The notes under the pieces are model-generated. The model saw only the letters and a list, made by a program, of their open reading frames with translations, was not told the DNA's origin and did no database searches. Both the position numbers and the translations under genes were made by a program. From the NCBI GenBank assembly GCA_022729735.1, contig DZAY01000004.1, positions 1 to 64,000 on the forward strand: a stretch of 64,000 nt of DNA. The letters are read 5' to 3'. Shown here piece after piece: positions 1-10,951 of this stretch. This DNA comes from Helicobacter cetorum (lineage in GTDB: Bacteria; Campylobacterota; Campylobacteria; Campylobacterales; DZAY01). Position 1 is the stretch's first letter, and each line of letters begins with the position of its first letter.

Positions 1-966
1 GAACTTTTTGGTAATTATCCAACAAAACAAGAAATAAAAGGCAAAGATGAAAAAGATGGAGAAACAGATGTCGATTCGGCTGATACTAAAAAGAAACCTA
101 AAAAAGGAAAAACTGTAGATATTCAGGCTGTTGTTGAAGAGTATATTCGAGAGAATAATAGTTTTGAAATTAAAAAAGAACTTAATAATAATTATCTTTT
201 GGCTAAAACTGATGGCAAAAAAATAGTTTATCATATTATTGGTCAAAAGCCAGATGATATAAAAAGAATTCCTATTTTACAAAATCTTCTATCTGCTATT
301 GATATAAGACTTTTTGGTGCAACTTTTGCAAGTAAAGAAGGGAATATGTCAATTCATGGAAATGTGCAAATAACTCACGGAATAAATATTTATTCTGAAA
401 ATAATATATTTAGTGAAGACATAACAAGTCCTTTTAGAAATCCAAATGCAAAATCAGAAGATAGTATGCAAACAACTATCGGAAATCAAACAGTATTAGA
501 AGAAGGTCATTATCTACATAACTTTACAATCAATCCTAAAAATAGTGAAGAACTTGTAAAATTAATAGATGATAAAGGATATTTAACAATTGATGATATA
601 GAAAAATTAAAAAATGCTATGAATAACAGTGTAACATATCTTGATAGTGCTTCTAAGATTGGTGTAGAAAATGAATTTTCCCTTTTTATTACATTGGTTA
701 AAGATTGTAAAATTCAACTCCCATCATTTACATCACTAATAAAAGTTATTAAACAAGACGGATTTAAACGAAAATTAGATTTATCAGAAATTAAAACTCT
801 TTTAGATGATATAGAAGAACATATTGAGGGAGTTGAAATTTTTATTGATGAGACAAAGTTTAATTATGATGATGAAATCTTTGATATTAAAAAAGTATGT
901 ATAAAATCTATTATTTCAAATAAAGAGTTCAAAAAGGAGTCAACAGATGATAGCACTCAATCTTAA
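1..966 (+). CDS. cas7: CRISPR-associated Cas7 (type I-B, Csh2-like), 5' end outside window
   Basis: The reading frame is open from base 1, so the gene begins upstream; a TTG at 199 is internal and not a start. Cas7 forms the backbone of the Cascade complex and coats the crRNA. The segment IDIRLFGATFAS (about 100-111 of the visible part) followed by GNVQITHGIN matches the conserved glycine-rich core of the Csh2/Cas7 family. The first 50 visible residues are Lys/Asp-rich and probably a family-variable insertion. The end overlaps the next gene by 20 bases. Position before cas5 and cas3 supports the call; cas6 and cas8 are expected just left of the window. Confidence 0.85.
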   Translation, partial: ELFGNYPTKQEIKGKDEKDGETDVDSADTKKKPKKGKTVDIQAVVEEYIRENNSFEIKKELNNNYLLAKTDGKKIVYHIIGQKPDDIKRIPILQNLLSAIDIRLFGATFASKEGNMSIHGNVQITHGINIYSENNIFSEDITSPFRNPNAKSEDSMQTTIGNQTVLEEGHYLHNFTINPKNSEELVKLIDDKGYLTIDDIEKLKNAMNNSVTYLDSASKIGVENEFSLFITLVKDCKIQLPSFTSLIKVIKQDGFKRKLDLSEIKTLLDDIEEHIEGVEIFIDETKFNYDDEIFDIKKVCIKSIISNKEFKKESTDDSTQS

Positions 967-1204
967 TATAAGAGATGAAGTTTATGATAAAGTGATGTAT
1001 TTTTTACAATCTCTACCAAAAAATGATATAGAGATTGTTCAAAAAGTAGCCATTGAAGAGATAGACCCTACATCTTTGCCAAAAGAACATTTTGATTATA
1101 TCAGCAAAGAAGAACTTGAAGAAATGGATAGAGTTTTAGCTGAAGCTAAAAAGATAGGTTTTAAAAATCTAAAAACTTTTGATGAGTTTAAAAATGAACT
1201 ATGA
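947..1204 (+). CDS. Antitoxin of a RelE/ParE-type toxin-antitoxin pair
   Basis: An 85-residue acidic protein whose opening (LNLNIRDEVYDKVMYFLQSL) resembles small antitoxins common in Campylobacterota, with a helical acidic tail likely to wrap the toxin. An AAGGAG ribosome site lies inside the 3' end of cas7, and the ATG at 947 overlaps cas7 by 20 bases, so it is translationally tied to the cas operon. It should neutralise the toxin encoded directly after it. No classic DNA-binding fold is obvious. The antitoxin role rests mainly on size, order and the convincing toxin next door. Confidence 0.75.
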   Translation: MIALNLNIRDEVYDKVMYFLQSLPKNDIEIVQKVAIEEIDPTSLPKEHFDYISKEELEEMDRVLAEAKKIGFKNLKTFDEFKNEL

Positions 1205-1460
1205 AATTATCCCTCTTAAGCCATTTCAGAAATTCTTTGCACTTAGAACATCTAGCGAAAGAGATACGATAAGCTTAAAACTAGAAGTTTTAAAAATAAA
1301 TCCATTTGATAGCAAAAGCTTGGACATCAAGAAACTAAAAGGCTACAAGAGAAGATATAGACTTAGAGTTTGGGGCTATAGGATAATCTACGAATTGCAT
1401 GATAATGAACTTATTATTATTTTGATGGATGGTGGTAGTAGAGGAGATGTATATAAATGA
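1194..1460 (+). CDS. RelE/ParE-family toxin
   Basis: An 88-residue basic protein with the RelE/ParE pattern: a helical start (FQKFFALRTSSERDTI), a central KLKGYKRRYRLRVWGYRIIY strand block and a final ELIIILMDGGSRGDVYK strand. Family members either cleave mRNA at the ribosome (RelE) or inhibit gyrase (ParE); the sequence does not decide which. I chose the ATG at 1194, which overlaps the antitoxin stop; ATG 1182 and TTG 1179 are upstream alternatives. The stop overlaps the cas5 start as ATGA, so the pair sits seamlessly between cas7 and cas5. Confidence 0.85.
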   Translation: MNYEIIPLKPFQKFFALRTSSERDTISLKLEVLKINPFDSKSLDIKKLKGYKRRYRLRVWGYRIIYELHDNELIIILMDGGSRGDVYK

Positions 1461-2239
1461 ATATAGATAAAATCATATCTTTTGATATTCAATCAGAGTT
1501 TGGTTTTTTTAAAAAACCAGATGTGAATGATAAATATTTTACATTCAATATAATTCCAAAGCCAACACTATTAGGAATATTTGGTGCTATTATTGGACTT
1601 GGTGGATATTCTCAAATGACAAAAGAAGATATTTATCCAGAGTTTTATAGAGAATTACTTGATTTGCAAATAGGTATTACACCATATGGAAATAAAGGTA
1701 TATATCAAAAACGAAATATTAAATACAACAATACCGTAGGTTATGCAAATAAAGATGGTGGAACTCTTAATATTGAGGAACAAACTTTAATTAATCCAAA
1801 GTATAAAATATATGTTGCTCTTAATTTATCAAATAAATCTCACAAAAAAATAGATGAATATCTAACTTCTAAAATAGTACAATATGAATATATTCCATAT
1901 ATGGGCAAGAACGAGTTTAAACTTGATATAAAAAATATTCAAGTATTTGAAGAGAATTTTTCATTTGAATTTAATGAATCATTTGCTATTAATACAATTT
2001 TTATAAATAATAGAAAAGAAGCTTTAAAATTAAATGAAACTTTAAGAGACCCTTTTGATGTTTCAATGAGTGAGACTTACTTTTATTATTATGAAAGATT
2101 ACCCATACTATTTGATGAATTAGGTCAATATCAATATGAAAATTTTAGTTATACAAATGCTAAATTTTCTAAAGATACAAAATTTATTCAAGATTTAAAA
2201 TTGGTTAAAATTAAGGATATAGTGATATGTCTTTATTAA
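1457..2239 (+). CDS. cas5: CRISPR-associated Cas5 (type I-B)
   Basis: Cas5 is the Cascade subunit that caps the 5' handle of the crRNA. The 260-residue protein opens with ISFDIQSEFGFFKKPD and then PKPTLLGIFGAIIGLGGYSQ, the conserved Cas5 N-terminal strand and glycine-rich loop. A later ETYFYYYERLPILFD segment fits the C-terminal region. The start ATG overlaps the toxin stop by four bases, and the stop overlaps the cas3 start by 13 bases, indicating coupled translation. Length is typical for type I-B Cas5. Confidence 0.88.
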   Translation: MNIDKIISFDIQSEFGFFKKPDVNDKYFTFNIIPKPTLLGIFGAIIGLGGYSQMTKEDIYPEFYRELLDLQIGITPYGNKGIYQKRNIKYNNTVGYANKDGGTLNIEEQTLINPKYKIYVALNLSNKSHKKIDEYLTSKIVQYEYIPYMGKNEFKLDIKNIQVFEENFSFEFNESFAINTIFINNRKEALKLNETLRDPFDVSMSETYFYYYERLPILFDELGQYQYENFSYTNAKFSKDTKFIQDLKLVKIKDIVICLY

Positions 2240-4809
2240 AATTTGACCATATAGTAAGAGAGCCTTATTTTGATTTTGAAAAAATTATTAAAAATTCTAA
2301 AAACTATTTTGCTCATTTGTCTAAAGAAACAATTTCAGAAAAAGAAAATCTCTTAACTCATTCTAATTTAGTTTTGAAATATTTTTTAAAATTAATATAT
2401 GGCAACCAAATAGAAAACAGTATTGATACTATTTTGTTCAAAATTTCAAATGACATTATTTTTCTAAATAGTATAAAACTACTTTATATAAAAGCTATCT
2501 ATTGGCATGACATTGGAAAAATAAATGAAAATTTTCAATTAGAAAAAATGAAAAATAGTAAATTTTCAAAAGTTAATTATGGTATTTCATCAAAACATTC
2601 TATACTAAGTGCTTATTTATATCTTATTAGTAGTTTTGATTATATCAATAAAAAATATCAAGACAGAAATCAAAAAATAGAACTTATTTCTATTTCAATT
2701 AACTTTGCAATGACAATTTGGCGACATCATACAGGAATTGAAAAATCCATAAAAGAACTTATTTGTGATAAAGATGAAGGATTACCAATTTGTAGTAAGT
2801 TAGATACATATTTAAATATATTAGATTTGGACATAAATAGGCAAACACATAATATATTGATAAATAATTTAGTTAATGGCGACTTGAAAAATATGTTAAA
2901 GACTAATGAAAATTATTATATCCTCTCAAAATCTCTCTTCTCACTTTTGATTATTTCAGATTATTATGCAACTGCTCAATTTATGAATTATGGGAATTGT
3001 GATGAATTGAAATATAAAGATTTTGGATTGATAGATGATAATTTTAGAGAAATAACTTATAAAAGATTTTATGAAAATCAATTTGATAAAGAACTCATAA
3101 ATAAAACTAATTGCAATTTTAAAGATTTTAATGAACTTCAAGAAAAATCAAATAACAATTTAAATCATCTACGAAATAAGCTTTTTATAGAAGTTAGAAC
3201 AAACTTACAAAATGAACTTAAAAAAGAGAAATTGCAAAATCTTTTCTATATAGAAGCTCCAACAGGTGCTGGAAAAACAAATTTATCGCTTATGAGTGTC
3301 GTTGAGATACTAAAAAATGATACTTCTATAAATAAAGTTTTTTATGTTTTTCCTTTTACGACTCTCATTACTCAAACATATGAATCAATAAAAAAAACAT
3401 TAAATCTTAATAACTCACAAATTGTAGAACTACACTCAAAAGCAAAATATAATCAAAAAGAGATTAATGAAGATGGAGTTTATGGATATGAGAAAAAAGA
3501 TTTTTTAGATAATCAGTTTATGAACTATCCGATTACACTTCTTAGTCATGTGAAATTTTTTGATATTTTAACAGGCATTAGCAAAGATGATAACTATATA
3601 TTTCATCGTTTAGCAAACTCGATTGTTATAATTGATGAGTTACAATCATATAATCCAAAATATTGGTCTCAAATCGCATATTTACTTGAAATATTATCTA
3701 AAAACTTGAATATCAAATTTATTTTAATGAGTGCAACACTGCCAAAAATCGGACAAATATTTGGAGATAATTTTGTTAATTTAGTATCAGATAAAAATAG
3801 TTATTTTTCAAATCCAAATTTTGCAAAAAGAGTAGAAGAGATAAAAGAGATTAAAGATAATACAAAAGAGAGTATTTATAAAACTCTTATAAAAGAGAGC
3901 CAAATTTATAAAAATAGCAATCAAAAAGTAAAAACTATTATAGAGTTTATCACCAAAAAAGGAGCAGATGAGTTTTATAAATATGTAGAAACACAAAAAG
4001 ATAAAATGTTTGATAAGACTTTTATTTTGAGTGGAACAATTTTAGAACCAAGACGAAAAGAGATAATAGATTTTTTAAAAAATAATGATGATAAAAATAT
4101 TTTACTCATCACAACTCAAGTGGTTGAAGCTGGGGTTGATATTGATATGGATATAGGATTTAAAGAAAAATCTCTAATAGATAGCGATGAACAATTAGCT
4201 GGACGAATAAATCGAAATAGTAAAAAAAGTGGAAACAAACTATTTTTATTTGAGATGGAGAAGAAAAATAGTAATTTTGTATATAGAGATGATAGAAGAT
4301 TAAAAGTCCAAAAAGAGTCTAAAAAAGATGAATTAGAAGATGTTTTGAACACAAAAGATTTTGATAAATTTTATAATCAAGTAATAGCAAAAATTCAAAA
4401 AGAAAATAGTACTAATTTTATGGAAAATTTAAATACATACATTGACTATATTAAAAATCTTCGCTTTAATGAAACCCATATAAAGCTTATAGATTCTCAA
4501 ACAATCTCTGTCTATGTGCCTCATAATAAAATGGCAAAACTCTATTGGAATGCTTATATAAAAATTATTGAAAATAAAGAGTTAGATTTTACTACCAAAA
4601 AAATCAACTTAAAAAAATTAACTGCAAAACTTTCAAAATATACATTTTCATTACTAAATTATCAAAATAGTGGAATTAAATATCTAAAACCATATAGTGA
4701 AGAAAAATATGGTTATTTATATTTAACTGAATGGAAAAATATTTATAGTTATGAAGATGGTTTAGACACAAGTGTATTAAGTGGTGATTTTGTAGGTATG
4801 ATTATCTAA
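2227..4809 (+). CDS. cas3: CRISPR-associated helicase-nuclease Cas3 (HD plus DExD)
   Basis: Cas3 is recruited by target-bound Cascade and degrades the invading DNA. The 860-residue protein has an N-terminal HD nuclease: THSNLVLKYF near residue 40 and YWHDIGKINENF near 92-103. The superfamily 2 helicase follows with Walker A EAPTGAGKTN near 344, Walker B as IIDELQSY near 470 (DELQ in place of DEAH, as in several Cas3 proteins), MSATLP near 501 and the motif VI segment AGRINRN near 658. Both catalytic halves look intact, so interference should be functional. Its start lies inside the 3' end of cas5. Confidence 0.95.
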   Translation: MSLLKFDHIVREPYFDFEKIIKNSKNYFAHLSKETISEKENLLTHSNLVLKYFLKLIYGNQIENSIDTILFKISNDIIFLNSIKLLYIKAIYWHDIGKINENFQLEKMKNSKFSKVNYGISSKHSILSAYLYLISSFDYINKKYQDRNQKIELISISINFAMTIWRHHTGIEKSIKELICDKDEGLPICSKLDTYLNILDLDINRQTHNILINNLVNGDLKNMLKTNENYYILSKSLFSLLIISDYYATAQFMNYGNCDELKYKDFGLIDDNFREITYKRFYENQFDKELINKTNCNFKDFNELQEKSNNNLNHLRNKLFIEVRTNLQNELKKEKLQNLFYIEAPTGAGKTNLSLMSVVEILKNDTSINKVFYVFPFTTLITQTYESIKKTLNLNNSQIVELHSKAKYNQKEINEDGVYGYEKKDFLDNQFMNYPITLLSHVKFFDILTGISKDDNYIFHRLANSIVIIDELQSYNPKYWSQIAYLLEILSKNLNIKFILMSATLPKIGQIFGDNFVNLVSDKNSYFSNPNFAKRVEEIKEIKDNTKESIYKTLIKESQIYKNSNQKVKTIIEFITKKGADEFYKYVETQKDKMFDKTFILSGTILEPRRKEIIDFLKNNDDKNILLITTQVVEAGVDIDMDIGFKEKSLIDSDEQLAGRINRNSKKSGNKLFLFEMEKKNSNFVYRDDRRLKVQKESKKDELEDVLNTKDFDKFYNQVIAKIQKENSTNFMENLNTYIDYIKNLRFNETHIKLIDSQTISVYVPHNKMAKLYWNAYIKIIENKELDFTTKKINLKKLTAKLSKYTFSLLNYQNSGIKYLKPYSEEKYGYLYLTEWKNIYSYEDGLDTSVLSGDFVGMII

Positions 4810-4818
4810 AGGAAAAAT

Positions 4819-5499
4819 ATGCAACTCTCAAATTTAAGCTTAAGAGAAAAAGAGCAACTATTTCGAGAATTAAGAGTTTCTATAACTCATCACTCAAATG
4901 CAATAGAAGGGATTACTCTTACTTTTGGTGAGACAAAAGCACTATTAGAAAATGGCACAACAGCAGGAGGAAAACCATTAAGCGAACAGCTTATTATTTT
5001 GGGTTTTGCAAAAGCTTATGATGTAATAATTCGTGAAGCAAATAATCAAAACTTTAAAATCACTTCATCATTTATCAAAGATTTGCACTATATAATGTTT
5101 GAAGATGCTCTAAAAATATCAAGTGGATTTGTAGAAAAACCAATAGGAGCTTATCGAACTGATGAGAGATATATAAAAGGTGTAAATATTAAATTGTCTC
5201 TACCTAATAAAATTGCTCAAGATATTGAAAATTTACTTTTTAGATATTCGCAAAAAATGAGTATTGAAGAGATAGCAACTTTTCATATAGAGTTTGAGAA
5301 AATTCACCCTTTTGCAGATGGAAATGGAAGAATTGGAAGATTATTAATGGCATTTCAATTTATTCAAAACGATTTAATACCGCTACTAATATTAAATGAT
5401 AATAGAAAAGAGTATCTTCAATCTTTAGAAAATTCAAATAATTTATCAGATTTTTTAATTATGTCTCAAAATGAGAGTTTAAAATTGGTTAATTTATGA
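4819..5499 (+). CDS. Fic-domain protein with N-terminal inhibitory motif
   Basis: Fic enzymes usually transfer AMP from ATP to hydroxyl side chains of target proteins. The catalytic loop HPFADGNGRIGR is complete at residues 163-174, including the histidine base and both arginines. An inhibitory motif of the form S-x-x-x-E-G (SNAIEG) is at 26-31, placing the protein in the self-inhibited class where the helix glutamate blocks ATP. A target-docking flap segment GAYRTDERYI is near 110-119. The gene lies nine bases after cas3, with AAGGAA before its ATG, and overlaps cas4 by four bases. Its target is unknown. Confidence 0.9.
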   Translation: MQLSNLSLREKEQLFRELRVSITHHSNAIEGITLTFGETKALLENGTTAGGKPLSEQLIILGFAKAYDVIIREANNQNFKITSSFIKDLHYIMFEDALKISSGFVEKPIGAYRTDERYIKGVNIKLSLPNKIAQDIENLLFRYSQKMSIEEIATFHIEFEKIHPFADGNGRIGRLLMAFQFIQNDLIPLLILNDNRKEYLQSLENSNNLSDFLIMSQNESLKLVNL

Positions 5500-5990
5500 A
5501 AATTACAGGCACGATAATAAACTACTATTTTCATTGCAAAACTCAAATGTGGCTTCACTCAAATCGTTTAAACCTCGAAGATAATAGCGAAGATGTGCGA
5601 ATTGGTAGAGTATTGCACGAAATAAATGAAGAAAGTAGCAAAAATGCTGAAGTTAAAATCGAAAATATCGCAATTGATAAGATTACTGATAATTATGTAG
5701 TTGAGCTAAAAAAATCAGATAGTGATATGGTTGCAACAAAATGGCAACTTTTATATTATTTATACATTTTAAAGCAAAAAGGTATAGTTAAAAGTGGCAG
5801 ATTAGAGTATTTTGAAACAAACAAGCAAGATAAAAAGAGTGAAATAGTAACTCTTGATGAGGTAAGTGAAAATGAGCTTTTGATAATTTTGCAAGAGATA
5901 GAAAAGCTTATGAACTCTAATATTTCACCAACTCCAGAGTTTTTGCCAAAGTGCAAAAAATGTGCATATTATGAGTATTGTTTTATATAA
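5496..5990 (+). CDS. cas4: CRISPR-associated Cas4 nuclease
   Basis: Cas4 trims prespacers and helps select the PAM during spacer acquisition with Cas1-Cas2. The 164-residue protein shows the RecB-like pattern: a histidine in IGRVLHEI, an aspartate in AIDKITDN, the E-x-K in VVELKKSD, and Q-x-x-x-Y in WQLLYYL. Iron-sulfur cysteines are present near the start (FHCKTQMW) and as CKKCAYYEYC at the end. The ATG overlaps the fic stop. Length fits the short type I-B Cas4. Confidence 0.9.
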   Translation: MKITGTIINYYFHCKTQMWLHSNRLNLEDNSEDVRIGRVLHEINEESSKNAEVKIENIAIDKITDNYVVELKKSDSDMVATKWQLLYYLYILKQKGIVKSGRLEYFETNKQDKKSEIVTLDEVSENELLIILQEIEKLMNSNISPTPEFLPKCKKCAYYEYCFI

Positions 5991-6009
5991 ATCAAAAAAA
6001 GGATAAATT

Positions 6010-6255
6010 ATGCTTATGTATGAAATACAAGAGATTGAAAATAGTCCATCTATATTAAATAGTATTGGAGTTGGAGAGATTGTAAAAGAGAAAAAACCTG
6101 TTGGATTTTTTATCTCATATAAATATGAAAAAGTTTTAAAAAATGTAATTTTAGAGATTGAAAAAATTGAAAAAATTGAGAAGCTTAAAAAGGTTGCTAT
6201 TGCACAAAAACAAGACCCAATAGAAGAAGGTGGAGTTGATGATGGAATTAAATAG
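6010..6255 (+). CDS. Probable antitoxin of a MazF-type pair (Phd/RelB-like)
   Basis: An 81-residue protein, with AAGGA six bases before the ATG. The segment VGEIVKEKKPVGFFISYKYE recalls the Phd/YefM pattern in which a strand ending in PVAVLIS precedes the toxin-binding helix, and the second half is highly charged (IEKIEKIEKLKK). It is immediately followed, with overlap, by a clear MazF-like toxin, which is the main reason for the call. It may bind its own promoter, but here it sits inside the cas operon, 19 bases after cas4. Confidence 0.65.
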   Translation: MLMYEIQEIENSPSILNSIGVGEIVKEKKPVGFFISYKYEKVLKNVILEIEKIEKIEKLKKVAIAQKQDPIEEGGVDDGIK

Positions 6256-6583
6256 AGGTGATATATGTTTGGTTGATTTCAATCCTGCAAAAGGTGGTGA
6301 AATTGGAAAACTAAGACCAGCTATAATTTTGAGCGATAAATGTCAAATAGAAATAGTTGATACTATAATTGTAATTCCTCTCTCAACTGTAATTCAAAAA
6401 GATACTCTACCATATAGATTTTTTATTTCTGCAAGAGATAAATTAAGGCTTGATAGTGATGCTTGTATTTATGAAATAAGGGCATTATCAAAGCAAAGAG
6501 TTAAAGAAAAACTTTCAAAATTAACATTGAATGAGTTAAAAATTATTCAAAATGCTATTTGTGAAATTTTAATAAAAGATTAA
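6242..6583 (+). CDS. MazF/PemK-family toxin (endoribonuclease)
   Basis: MazF toxins cleave single-stranded RNA at short sequences. The 113-residue protein has the family opening RGDICLVDFNPAKGGEIGKL followed by RPAIILSD, then TIIVIPLST and a C-terminal helix ending ICEILIKD. I chose the ATG at 6242, six bases after GGAG; ATG 6239 and GTG 6230 are alternatives. It overlaps the preceding antitoxin by 14 bases and ends eight bases before cas1. No frameshift or missing core residue is seen, so it is probably active and requires its antitoxin. Confidence 0.88.
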   Translation: MELNRGDICLVDFNPAKGGEIGKLRPAIILSDKCQIEIVDTIIVIPLSTVIQKDTLPYRFFISARDKLRLDSDACIYEIRALSKQRVKEKLSKLTLNELKIIQNAICEILIKD

Positions 6584-6591
6584 GTAATACT

Positions 6592-7913
<1,322 letters not shown>

Positions 7914-8078
7914 TTTTTCCAACCTCTTTTTATTTTTATTTATGCTCAAAGTGGCTAAAATACGAAATTAGCCAGTTCTTTTAACAACTCATTGTTAAAA
8001 ACTAAAAACGCTTGGAAAAACCATCTCAAAGTGGCTATTTTGGGGAATGTATATTTTTCAAATTGCCTATTTTCTTTA
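7914..8078 (+). promoter_or_regulatory. CRISPR leader
   Basis: The 165-base AT-rich stretch lies between cas2 and the first repeat, on the side where the array begins as judged by repeat polarity. It contains a direct repeat CTCAAAGTGGCTA at 7945-7957 and 8025-8037 (80-base spacing). It also has two inverted repeats: TGGCTAA/TTAGCCA (7952-7974) and TTTTAACAA/TTGTTAAAA around CTCA (7979-8000). Such elements could guide integration or host-factor binding. The array promoter is expected here, but no clear -35/-10 pair stands out. Confidence 0.75.
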
Positions 8079-10354
8079 CTTTAACCTATACACATGGTGT
8101 ATTGAAATAGTGGTAATCTTACTGTTACACAAAAGAAAATTTATCTTTAACCTATACACATGGTGTATTGAAATGCTAATGAAATTTGTTTAATTTTAAT
8201 AAATGATTTGAACTTTAACCTATACACATGGTGTATTGAAATTTTATAAGAATATCTATTTTTTCTGATAAGAGTTTACTTTAACCTATACACATGGTGT
8301 ATTGAAATCTTGAAGCAAAAGATAAAACACCCATTTGTTATAATCTTTAACCTATACACATGGTGTATTGAAATATAAACTCTATATTGCAAACGATAAA
8401 AAGATAAAACTTTAACCTATACACATGGTGTATTGAAATACAGGTGCAACACTTACCCAAGTTCCATTAATTTTGACTTTAACCTATACACATGGTGTAT
8501 TGAAATACAGCTATATATGATAGTGGAGAAGGTCCTGGTCTACTTTAACCTATACACATGGTGTATTGAAATTTGGGGGAGCTGGAAGCAGTGAAGCTGG
8601 AAGCAGTGCTTTAACCTATACACATGGTGTATTGAAATTTTTCTTTTATGATTAGAGGATTTTTAAATATTTTTGCTTTAACCTATACACATGGTGTATT
8701 GAAATTTTTGAACAAAATTTGTATCCCTTGACAAAAAATTTCTTTAACCTATACACATGGTGTATTGAAATTGAAAAGTAATCTTAAAAGTATTACTAAC
8801 TTGTTTAAACTTTAACCTATACACATGGTGTATTGAAATGTCGTTGGTCTGACAAGTGAAATTAATAATAAAAACTTTAACCTATACACATGGTGTATTG
8901 AAATCTTGGTGAGTATTTAAATGCTCACCAAATTCTTTTCTTTAACCTATACACATGGTGTATTGAAATAAATTGTAGAAAAAGACCAAGCGGAGCGATA
9001 CTTTACCTTTAACCTATACACATGGTGTATTGAAATGCTCCAGCAACAAGTGGCAAAGCTGTTGTTAGGATAGCTTTAACCTATACACATGGTGTATTGA
9101 AATCCTAATAAAAATGGGTCTATAACTCCCATTTTTATTACTTTAACCTATACACATGGTGTATTGAAATACATATGTTAAAAAGTCTATTTGATGAAGG
9201 GTTAACTTTAACCTATACACATGGTGTATTGAAATTTTTAGATGTTTGCCTCCAATATCGGAAAGATTTCTTTAACCTATACACATGGTGTATTGAAATT
9301 ACTTAAAAGTAGAGGCTTTACGGCTTTTATTGGTCTTTAACCTATACACATGGTGTATTGAAATTTAACACCCATTTTGGTAAATACTCCAAATGGGCTT
9401 ACTTTAACCTATACACATGGTGTATTGAAATAGAGATGTTAAAAAGTCTATTTGATGAAGGGTTAATCCTTTAACCTATACACATGGTGTATTGAAATTA
9501 GATAGTGCCAAAAATTTCATAACTGGCGATAGAGCTTTAACCTATACACATGGTGTATTGAAATATTCCTCTTTTAATTTTTTTTTAATTTAATTGATGT
9601 CTTTAACCTATACACATGGTGTATTGAAATACTTCTTTTAGTTTGCTTTGAAGTTGTCTAATTTGTCTTTAACCTATACACATGGTGTATTGAAATGTTG
9701 GTAATGGTGGAGGAACTTATGACCCAAACATTCTTTAACCTATACACATGGTGTATTGAAATCTTTGCCGACTGGTTTTAGTGAGGATATGATGGCAAAC
9801 TTTAACCTATACACATGGTGTATTGAAATCCTATTAAAACTTTTAAAAATAATGTTCCCTCTCCTTTAACCTATACACATGGTGTATTGAAATTTGATTA
9901 ACTTGATAGATGGCTCTAAAACTCTATCTTCTTTAACCTATACACATGGTGTATTGAAATCAAGCCCCTTTTAATTTTGCAGAAGTTGCGACTGGCTTTA
10001 ACCTATACACATGGTGTATTGAAATAATCTTAATCCTAATTCTAATAAATCTCGTGTTTTACTTTAACCTATACACATGGTGTATTGAAATAGCTCTAAA
10101 AGCTTATTAAATACATCATCAATTGTAGCTTTAACCTATACACATGGTGTATTGAAATTCGATTATTGATGATTGAAATAACTCCGAGAAGAAGCTTTAA
10201 CCTATACACATGGTGTATTGAAATTTTACTCTTATCTCAACTTTTTTAGTTGCGCTGAAGCTTTAACCTATACACATGGTGTATTGAAATGTATTAACAA
10301 TACTACTATTTTTTTTACTAATAACTTTAACCTATACACATGGTGTATTGAAAT
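8079..10354 (+). CRISPR. CRISPR array, 35 repeats of 30 nt, 34 spacers
   Basis: By reading I count 35 copies of the same repeat, starting CTTTAACCTATACACATGGT and ending GTATTGAAAT, with no variant, including the last copy. Spacers are 34-38 nt. The repeat holds a perfect six-base stem ATACAC/GTGTAT around ATG. The ATTGAAAT end is the expected eight-base 5' handle of type I-B crRNA, so transcription runs left to right from the leader. Spacers at 9171-9205 and 9432-9468 are near-duplicates. Those at 8905-8939, 9104-9140 and 9365-9401 are hairpins. An intact cas1-cas2 pair sits upstream. Confidence 0.99.
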
Positions 10355-10393: not shown

Positions 10394-10951
10394 TTATTCA
10401 ACTAATTTGATAATTTTTTCACCGACTTTTAAATACTCCGTAGATGAACCATACAAATTCATCATCATAATCGCACCTTGAGTTAAAGCCACATACTCTT
10501 TTGCTAAAGAGAGAGCTTCAGAGGAAGAGTATTTTGATTCTAAAATTTTGGCAAGTGCATTTTCCCAAGCCAAAAAGTAAGATTTTATCTCCTCTTTAAA
10601 TGGTTGGTTTTCATAAGAAACTTCCAAAGCGAGATTACCAAGTAAACAACCACCCTCACTATGCAAGAAATAATCATCTGTTTTTTTGACAAAAAGTTTT
10701 AACTTTTGTATATCCGACAAATCAGTTTTATTGGCAATACTGTAGATATTCTCTTGAAAATATTCGTGAATATATCTCAAAGATTCCAAACCAATCTCAT
10801 CTTTACTTTTAAAATAGTGATAGATACTCCCTTTGATAAGCCCACAAGCATCGGCAATATTTGACATAGAAGTGTTGTAATATCCACGAATTTTAAAAAG
10901 TTTGATAGACTCTTTTAAAATTTCCTCTTTTGATGTTTTTTTAATTGCCAT
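10394..10951 (-). CDS. TetR-family transcriptional repressor
   Basis: The protein (185 residues from the ATG at 10951) has an N-terminal helix-turn-helix: SKEEILKESIKLFKIRGYYN, then SNIADACGLIKGSIYHYFKS, then KDEIGLESL, the standard TetR arrangement. The C-terminal ligand domain has no recognisable effector signature. A longer version from TTG 10966 would run into the operator, so the ATG is preferred. It probably represses itself through the palindrome at 10963-10978. No efflux or enzyme partner gene is adjacent, which is unusual for the family. Confidence 0.88.
   Translation of the reverse strand: MAIKKTSKEEILKESIKLFKIRGYYNTSMSNIADACGLIKGSIYHYFKSKDEIGLESLRYIHEYFQENIYSIANKTDLSDIQKLKLFVKKTDDYFLHSEGGCLLGNLALEVSYENQPFKEEIKSYFLAWENALAKILESKYSSSEALSLAKEYVALTQGAIMMMNLYGSSTEYLKVGEKIIKLVE

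What the first reader, a model, noticed from the sequence alone, without database searches (positions are those of the whole stretch)
947..6583. Type I-B cas operon interleaved with three toxin-like insertions
Between cas7 and cas1 the operon carries a RelE/ParE-type pair, a self-inhibited Fic protein and a MazF/PemK-type pair, each in a different inter-cas gap and each fused to its neighbours by overlaps or gaps under 20 bases. The layout is cas7-TA-cas5-cas3-Fic-cas4-TA-cas1-cas2. Toxins near CRISPR loci are known, and small RNA toxins can guard Cascade, but three protein modules of different families built into one operon is unusual. One reading is that they make loss of the operon costly or trigger dormancy when Cas function is disturbed.
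Basis: partly seen in the sequence, partly recalled or inferred. Interest (0 to 1): 0.85.

Follow-up and report, generated by a model that had tools for sequence, protein, structure and literature searches.

The report
Toxin modules nested inside a CRISPR operon
A bacterial CRISPR gene cluster carries three different toxin-type genes wedged between its own genes; this is real and follows a recurring habit of this bacterial group, whose CRISPR operons often collect extra defence genes, so it extends something already described rather than being a one-off.

Summary
The layout is cas7-[RelBE-type pair]-cas5-cas3-[Fic]-cas4-[MazEF-type pair]-cas1-cas2, all on one strand with overlaps or gaps of 19 nt or less, followed by a 35-repeat array. 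The missing cas6-cas8-cas7 start ends contig C61, which overlaps the window start.

It is not a singular design. Of 49 Campylobacterales-type I-B loci, 29 carry non-cas modules inside the operon: RelE, MazF, VapC, MNT-HEPN, GNAT, Fic, RhuM-Fic, Septu, a reverse transcriptase, SIR2, YhcG and others. The automatic count gives 38 of 268 junctions occupied, against 0 of 60 in nine Clostridia-type operons and none in about 38 nap operons. All 53 inserted ORFs lie on the cas strand. At this rate 2.7 loci with three or more inserts are expected, and three are seen.

The same modules sit at different junctions in relatives, and the Fic forms a cas-embedded clade. Purifying selection argues against decaying passengers. 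I read them as co-expressed extra anti-phage layers. Addiction or a Cas-sensing guard is possible but has no evidence here. Toxin-antitoxin and Fic genes in type I cas loci were already reported (PMC3936711).

The parts
1..966 (+). cas7, 3' part; the 5' end, cas8 and cas6 lie at the end of contig C61
   Evidence: Pfam Cas_Cas7 E 2.3e-22; 55-base identity between C61 end and window start
947..1204 (+). antitoxin-like gene (85 aa) paired with RelE; start lies inside cas7
   Evidence: no Pfam hit; homologs of 53-74% identity precede RelE in L030, L023, L200
1200..1460 (+). RelE/ParE-type toxin (86 aa), overlapping the antitoxin gene and cas5
   Evidence: PF05016 E 8.8e-6; PDB RelE3 E 4.6e-5
1457..2239 (+). 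cas5b
   Evidence: TIGR02592 E 9.6e-35
2227..4809 (+). cas3 (HD nuclease and helicase)
   Evidence: TIGR01587 and TIGR01596 over cut-off
4819..5499 (+). solitary Fic protein; core HPFADGNGRIGR, N-terminal SNAIEG inhibitory motif; PADLOC PDC-S04
   Evidence: PF02661 E 2.5e-17; PDC-S04 E 4.2e-41; PDB 4x2e E 2.7e-24
5496..5990 (+). cas4
   Evidence: PF01930 E 8.4e-47
6010..6255 (+). antitoxin-like gene (81 aa) paired with MazF
   Evidence: homologs precede MazF in L107, L175, L186 and others
6230..6583 (+). MazF/PemK toxin (117 aa)
   Evidence: PF02452 E 1.2e-21; PDB MazF E 5.4e-14
6592..7605 (+). cas1b
   Evidence: TIGR03641 E 5.1e-113
7602..7913 (+). cas2
   Evidence: ORF; 45-78% identical to the gene after cas1 in relatives
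8079..10354 (+). CRISPR array, 35 identical 30-nt repeats, 34 spacers of 34-38 nt

Best explanation
The type I-B cas operon of this Campylobacterales lineage is a recurrent landing site for compact defence modules, which settle precisely in inter-cas junctions on the cas strand and become part of the operon. Shown: placement, tight spacing, intactness, recurrence in relatives, presence of the same modules at different junctions, purifying selection. Inferred: RelBE, Fic and MazEF are transcribed and translated with the Cas proteins and act as additional anti-phage layers. When a phage escapes or outruns interference and host synthesis falters, the labile antitoxins are lost (or Fic self-inhibition is relieved), RelE and MazF cut mRNA and Fic modifies a target protein, and the cell stops supporting the phage. 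Physical embedding keeps the set together in transfer and gives all parts one expression programme. The three modules were acquired separately.
For: 38 of 268 inter-cas junctions occupied in 48 Campylobacterota loci, 0 of 60 in nine Clostridia-type loci; 53 of 53 inserted ORFs on the cas strand; 82% of module/cas boundaries at 20 nt or less. Occupants are mostly known or candidate defence or TA families: Septu, DRT UG13a, PDC-S02/S13/S23/S04, PD-T4-5, VapC, MNT-HEPN, SIR2. Nap-operon control: no such inserts in about 38 operons. Separate histories: Fic in a cas-embedded clade, MazF nested among free-standing MazF, RelE nearest to a copy at another junction; at least 9-13 changes of TA state on the cas trees. 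dN/dS about 0.10-0.27 for most toxin comparisons (0.53 for the distant MazF pair) and 0.15-0.43 for antitoxins. Embedded MazEF pairs have 19-63 nt upstream against a median of 158 nt for free ones (p 0.002). Precedent with shown phage defence: DarTG2 inside a type I R-M operon (PMC12255303).
Against: No expression data, so co-transcription is inferred. No phage assay on any embedded module here. The -10 hexamer comparison did not separate embedded from free modules, so loss of private promoters is unproven; the L030 RelBE keeps a TATAAT box and a palindrome, and three MazF insertions keep a TATAAT. TA modules are mobile, so some hitchhiking is likely. The locus set was gathered by Cas1 similarity, contains fragments and related members, and the outgroup is small.
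Confidence: 0.5

Rival explanations
1. Hitchhiking: inter-cas junctions tolerate same-strand insertions, TA modules are mobile, and they persist by their own addictiveness without serving CRISPR immunity or defence.
For: Numbers per locus fit independent insertion; MazF derives from the free-standing pool; L030 RelBE retains a promoter-like box and operator-like palindrome; many bare junctions in relatives.
Against: Non-TA defence systems without addictive power (Septu, reverse transcriptase, YhcG, SIR2) occupy the same junctions; no comparable inserts in nap operons; the Fic clade is cas-embedded in all three members found.
Confidence: 0.25
2. Addiction: the type II pairs make loss or silencing of the cas operon costly, stabilising it.
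For: Two intact type II TA pairs co-oriented with cas and overlapping or abutting cas reading frames.
Against: Fic is solitary; TA-free I-B operons are common in relatives; no sign that TA-bearing operons are better preserved (L123 carries a TA and a split cas3). Not tested directly.
Confidence: 0.17
3. Guard: the toxins sense inhibition or loss of Cas function, like PrrC with EcoprrI or CreT with Cascade.
For: The arrangement resembles PrrC in a type I R-M locus (PMC2610378).
Against: No degenerate CRISPR repeat beyond chance-level matches near the modules and no array spacer matching the operon, so no CreA-like element was found; no sequence feature linking toxin and Cas proteins was seen. 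Protein contacts were not testable.
Confidence: 0.08

Closest known systems
Fic, RhuM-Fic and TA pairs in type I cas loci (PMC3936711, Nucleic Acids Res 2013)
   Same: Fic/DOC, RhuM-Fic, Phd-PIN and MazE-type genes within type I cas loci, mostly on the cas strand; coupling of immunity and dormancy proposed.
   Different: Here three modules at three junctions of one operon, a lineage-wide junction count, and evidence that the same modules sit at different junctions.
DarTG2 embedded between hsdS and hsdR of a type I R-M operon (PMC12255303); guilt-by-embedding candidates (Payne et al. 2024 preprint, cited there, not read)
   Same: A toxin-antitoxin system nested in another defence operon; the window Fic matches PADLOC candidate PDC-S04.
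   Different: Host operon is CRISPR-Cas; no RptR-type regulator was identified; function untested.
rlo inserts in Campylobacter jejuni type I R-M loci and PrrC (PMC2610378)
   Same: Toxin-type genes inserted inside a defence operon of a related organism; PrrC is a guard of its R-M enzyme.
   Different: Different toxin families; no evidence of protein-level silencing by Cas proteins.
CreTA RNA guards of CRISPR-Cas (PMC9458426, PMC8501985; abstracts read)
   Same: Toxin linked to a type I system.
   Different: CreTA uses RNA toxin and crRNA-like antitoxin; here protein pairs, with no ectopic repeat found.

Membership tests
Type I-B CRISPR-Cas | Cas1b, Cas5b, Cas7, Cas3, Cas4, Cas8 and Cas6 with an adjacent array | tested here: met
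   cas6 and cas8 on contig C61 (join inferred)
RelBE/ParDE type II TA | RelE/ParE-fold toxin preceded by a small antitoxin gene | tested here: met
   antitoxin by position and homologs only
RelBE/ParDE type II TA | toxin inhibits growth and antitoxin neutralises it | not testable with these tools
   needs expression assay; RelE versus ParE activity undecided
MazEF/PemIK | MazF/PemK-fold toxin over curated cut-off, paired with upstream antitoxin | tested here: met
   PF02452 77.4 bits against 23.1; antitoxin homologs paired with MazF in many genomes
Class II (N-terminally self-inhibited) Fic | HPFx(D/E)GNGRxxR core and (S/T)xxxE(G/N) N-terminal motif | tested here: met
   HPFADGNGRIGR and SNAIEG read directly from the sequence, aligned to 4x2e HSNKIEG
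Defence modules embedded in defence operons (guilt-by-embedding) | module flanked on both sides by genes of one other defence system, same strand | tested here: met
Defence modules embedded in defence operons (guilt-by-embedding) | embedded module protects against phage | not testable with these tools
   no assay possible
CreTA | ectopic degenerate CRISPR repeats and RNA toxin | tested here: not met
   best match in 1-8000 is 20 of 30 bases, the same as the best match elsewhere in the window
PrrC-type guard | toxin held inactive by the host defence enzyme and released when that enzyme is inhibited | not testable with these tools
   needs co-purification and anti-CRISPR challenge

The most novel reading that the evidence does not exclude
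A lineage of toxins (the embedded Fic clade and the RelBE subfamily) has specialised for life inside I-B cas operons, moves between operons and junctions, and works as a guard: it is held in check by the Cas machinery or its ongoing synthesis and fires when a phage disables it.
Probability: 0.1. Interest if true: 0.8.

Novelty: new member of a known kind. Interest (0 to 1): 0.45.

Why it matters
It shows that the cas operon itself, not just its neighbourhood, behaves as a defence island in Campylobacterales. That gives a ready list of embedded genes, several of unknown family, to test for phage defence. The natural set of relatives with and without each module, at different junctions, makes the coupling of CRISPR immunity with dormancy (proposed in PMC3506569) directly testable.

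Tried and rejected
CreA-like repeats and self-targeting spacers in the operon: none beyond chance level. Private promoter loss by -10 hexamer count: inconclusive in this AT-rich DNA, and the sigma-70 scan found no more than shuffles. A shared operator: the palindrome TGTGACA-N6-TGTCACA occurs only in L030. The idea that free Fic relatives sit in R-M operons: neighbours are mixed, some beside DNA methylases. Triple insertion as a designed set: numbers fit independent insertion. RelE ascertainment: L023 and L030 were found through Cas1, so the share of cas-embedded RelE is biased upward; among 399 sampled genomes only one other copy (G007) was seen to be cas-embedded, and neighbours were not examined for every distant hit. 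The Payne et al. preprint could not be read.

Full report
OBSERVATION. The window begins inside cas7 at the start of contig C32 of a 2.52 Mb, 66-contig genome. ORFs and family searches give cas7 (1-966), an antitoxin-like gene (947-1204), a RelE/ParE toxin (1200-1460), cas5b (1457-2239), cas3 (2227-4809), Fic (4819-5499), cas4 (5496-5990), an antitoxin-like gene (6010-6255), MazF/PemK (6230-6583), cas1b (6592-7605), cas2 (7602-7913) and a 35-repeat array. Contig C61 ends with cas6, cas8 and the start of cas7, and its last 55 bases equal the first 55 of the window, so the operon is very probably complete. The finding is confirmed.

IDENTITY OF THE MODULES. Fic has the full HPFADGNGRIGR core and an N-terminal SNAIEG motif, aligned to the solved Fic 4x2e, and matches PADLOC candidate PDC-S04. 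MazF matches solved MazF proteins. The RelE-like toxin matches RelE structures weakly. Neither antitoxin has a Pfam family, but both have homologs paired with the same toxins elsewhere. Most toxin comparisons give dN/dS of 0.10-0.27 and antitoxins 0.15-0.43, so the modules are maintained. The more distant MazF comparison with L107 gives 0.53.

RELATIVES. Cas1 searches in genome contigs and in 399 genomes of the order gave 60 distinct Cas1b loci. The gene orders show that embedding is a habit of the group. Examples: L023 cas7|RelBE|cas5 and cas3|MazF|cas4, with YhcG at cas6|cas8; L030 cas3|RelBE|cas4; L108 cas8|Septu|cas7 and cas7|Fic|cas5; L065 (same genome as the window, contig C28) cas7|Fic|cas5; L107 and L118 cas3|MazEF|cas4; L117 cas3|MNT-HEPN|cas4|VapBC|cas1; L122 cas7|YhcG|cas5|RT|cas3|VapBC|cas4; L126 cas5|SIR2|cas3; L132 with R-M-type genes in cas5|cas3; L121 and L131 cas4|RhuM-Fic|cas1; a Bro-N protein (PDC-S13) in seven loci. 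L200 (genome G007) adds a third cas7|RelBE|cas5.

COUNTS. An automatic count over 48 Campylobacterota-type loci finds 38 of 268 junctions occupied, most often cas3|cas4 (13 of 42). All 53 inserted ORFs lie on the cas strand, and 82% of module/cas boundaries are 20 nt or less. Nine Clostridia-type loci have 0 of 60. A hand count including L200, L129 and L132 gives 29 of 49 loci with 42 inserts; a Poisson model expects 2.7 loci with three or more and three are seen (window, L023, L122). As a non-defence control, about 38 nap operons from the same order hold no recognisable toxin or defence insert by gene clustering, only a few recurring small genes (the clusters were judged by eye). Limits: the loci are related to each other, many are fragments, two bear odd bin labels (L007, L017), ORFs were called by length, and the outgroup is small.

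HISTORY. The window Fic, the C28 Fic and the L108 Fic form one clade (SH-aLRT 98) apart from free-standing Fic, yet sit at two different junctions. The window RelE pairs with L030, which carries it at another junction. Window and L023 share the same overlap, in which cas7 uses a stop codon inside the antitoxin gene, which suggests common descent of that insertion; L200 has no such overlap. The window MazF groups with free-standing MazF and apart from the MazF of L107 and L118, so MazF entered cas operons more than once. On the Cas1 and Cas3 trees the TA state needs at least 13 and 9 changes.

MECHANISM. Shown: precise, same-strand placement with coding overlaps; maintenance by selection; short upstream spacing of embedded MazEF compared with free MazEF (19-63 nt against a median of 158 nt, p 0.002). 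Inferred: co-expression with Cas and action as extra anti-phage layers. Some embedded modules may keep their own promoters: L030 has a TATAAT box and a palindrome, and the hexamer test does not separate embedded from free. No CreA-like repeat or matching spacer was found, so a crRNA-based guard is not supported; a protein-level guard and addiction remain open.

COMPARISON. Fic, RhuM-Fic and TA pairs in type I cas loci were reported in PMC3936711, the coupling idea in PMC3506569, a TA system nested in a type I R-M operon with shown phage defence in PMC12255303, and rlo inserts in Campylobacter jejuni R-M loci in PMC2610378. What I did not find reported, in a library limited to open papers, is the junction-level frequency in Campylobacterales and the presence of the same modules at different junctions.

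VERDICT. A real and informative example of a known kind. Interest 0.45.

Noticed in passing
L065:1333-16581 (contig C28, same genome): Two I-B interference modules in tandem (cas6-cas8-cas7-Fic-cas5-cas3, then cas6-cas8-cas7-cas5-cas3-cas4-cas1-cas2), apparently sharing one adaptation module.
   Followed up: partly
L066:2939-7976 (contig C44, same genome): A 570-aa reverse transcriptase-like/Cas1 fusion ORF, with the rest of Cas1 in another frame past a stop, beside RAMP-like genes that look like a type III system (by eye).
   Followed up: no
L195:2244-4227: A Septu-like pair (PtuA-like ATPase and an HNH-like gene, by eye) on the opposite strand about 3 kb upstream of cas6 on contig C61.
   Followed up: no
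window 9171-9205 and 9432-9468: Two spacers share about 26 bases, as if acquired twice from one source.
   Followed up: no
window 9565-9600 and about 10914-10946: One spacer resembles the 5' part of the nearby TetR-like gene (23 of 25 bases, AT-rich), a possible weak self-match.
   Followed up: no
L030:8875-8894: Perfect palindrome TGTGACA-N6-TGTCACA with a TATAAT upstream of the embedded RelBE, suggesting a retained private operator.
   Followed up: partly
L128: A decayed I-B operon (fragmented cas5 and cas3) that still has intact-length cas4, cas1 and cas2.
   Followed up: no
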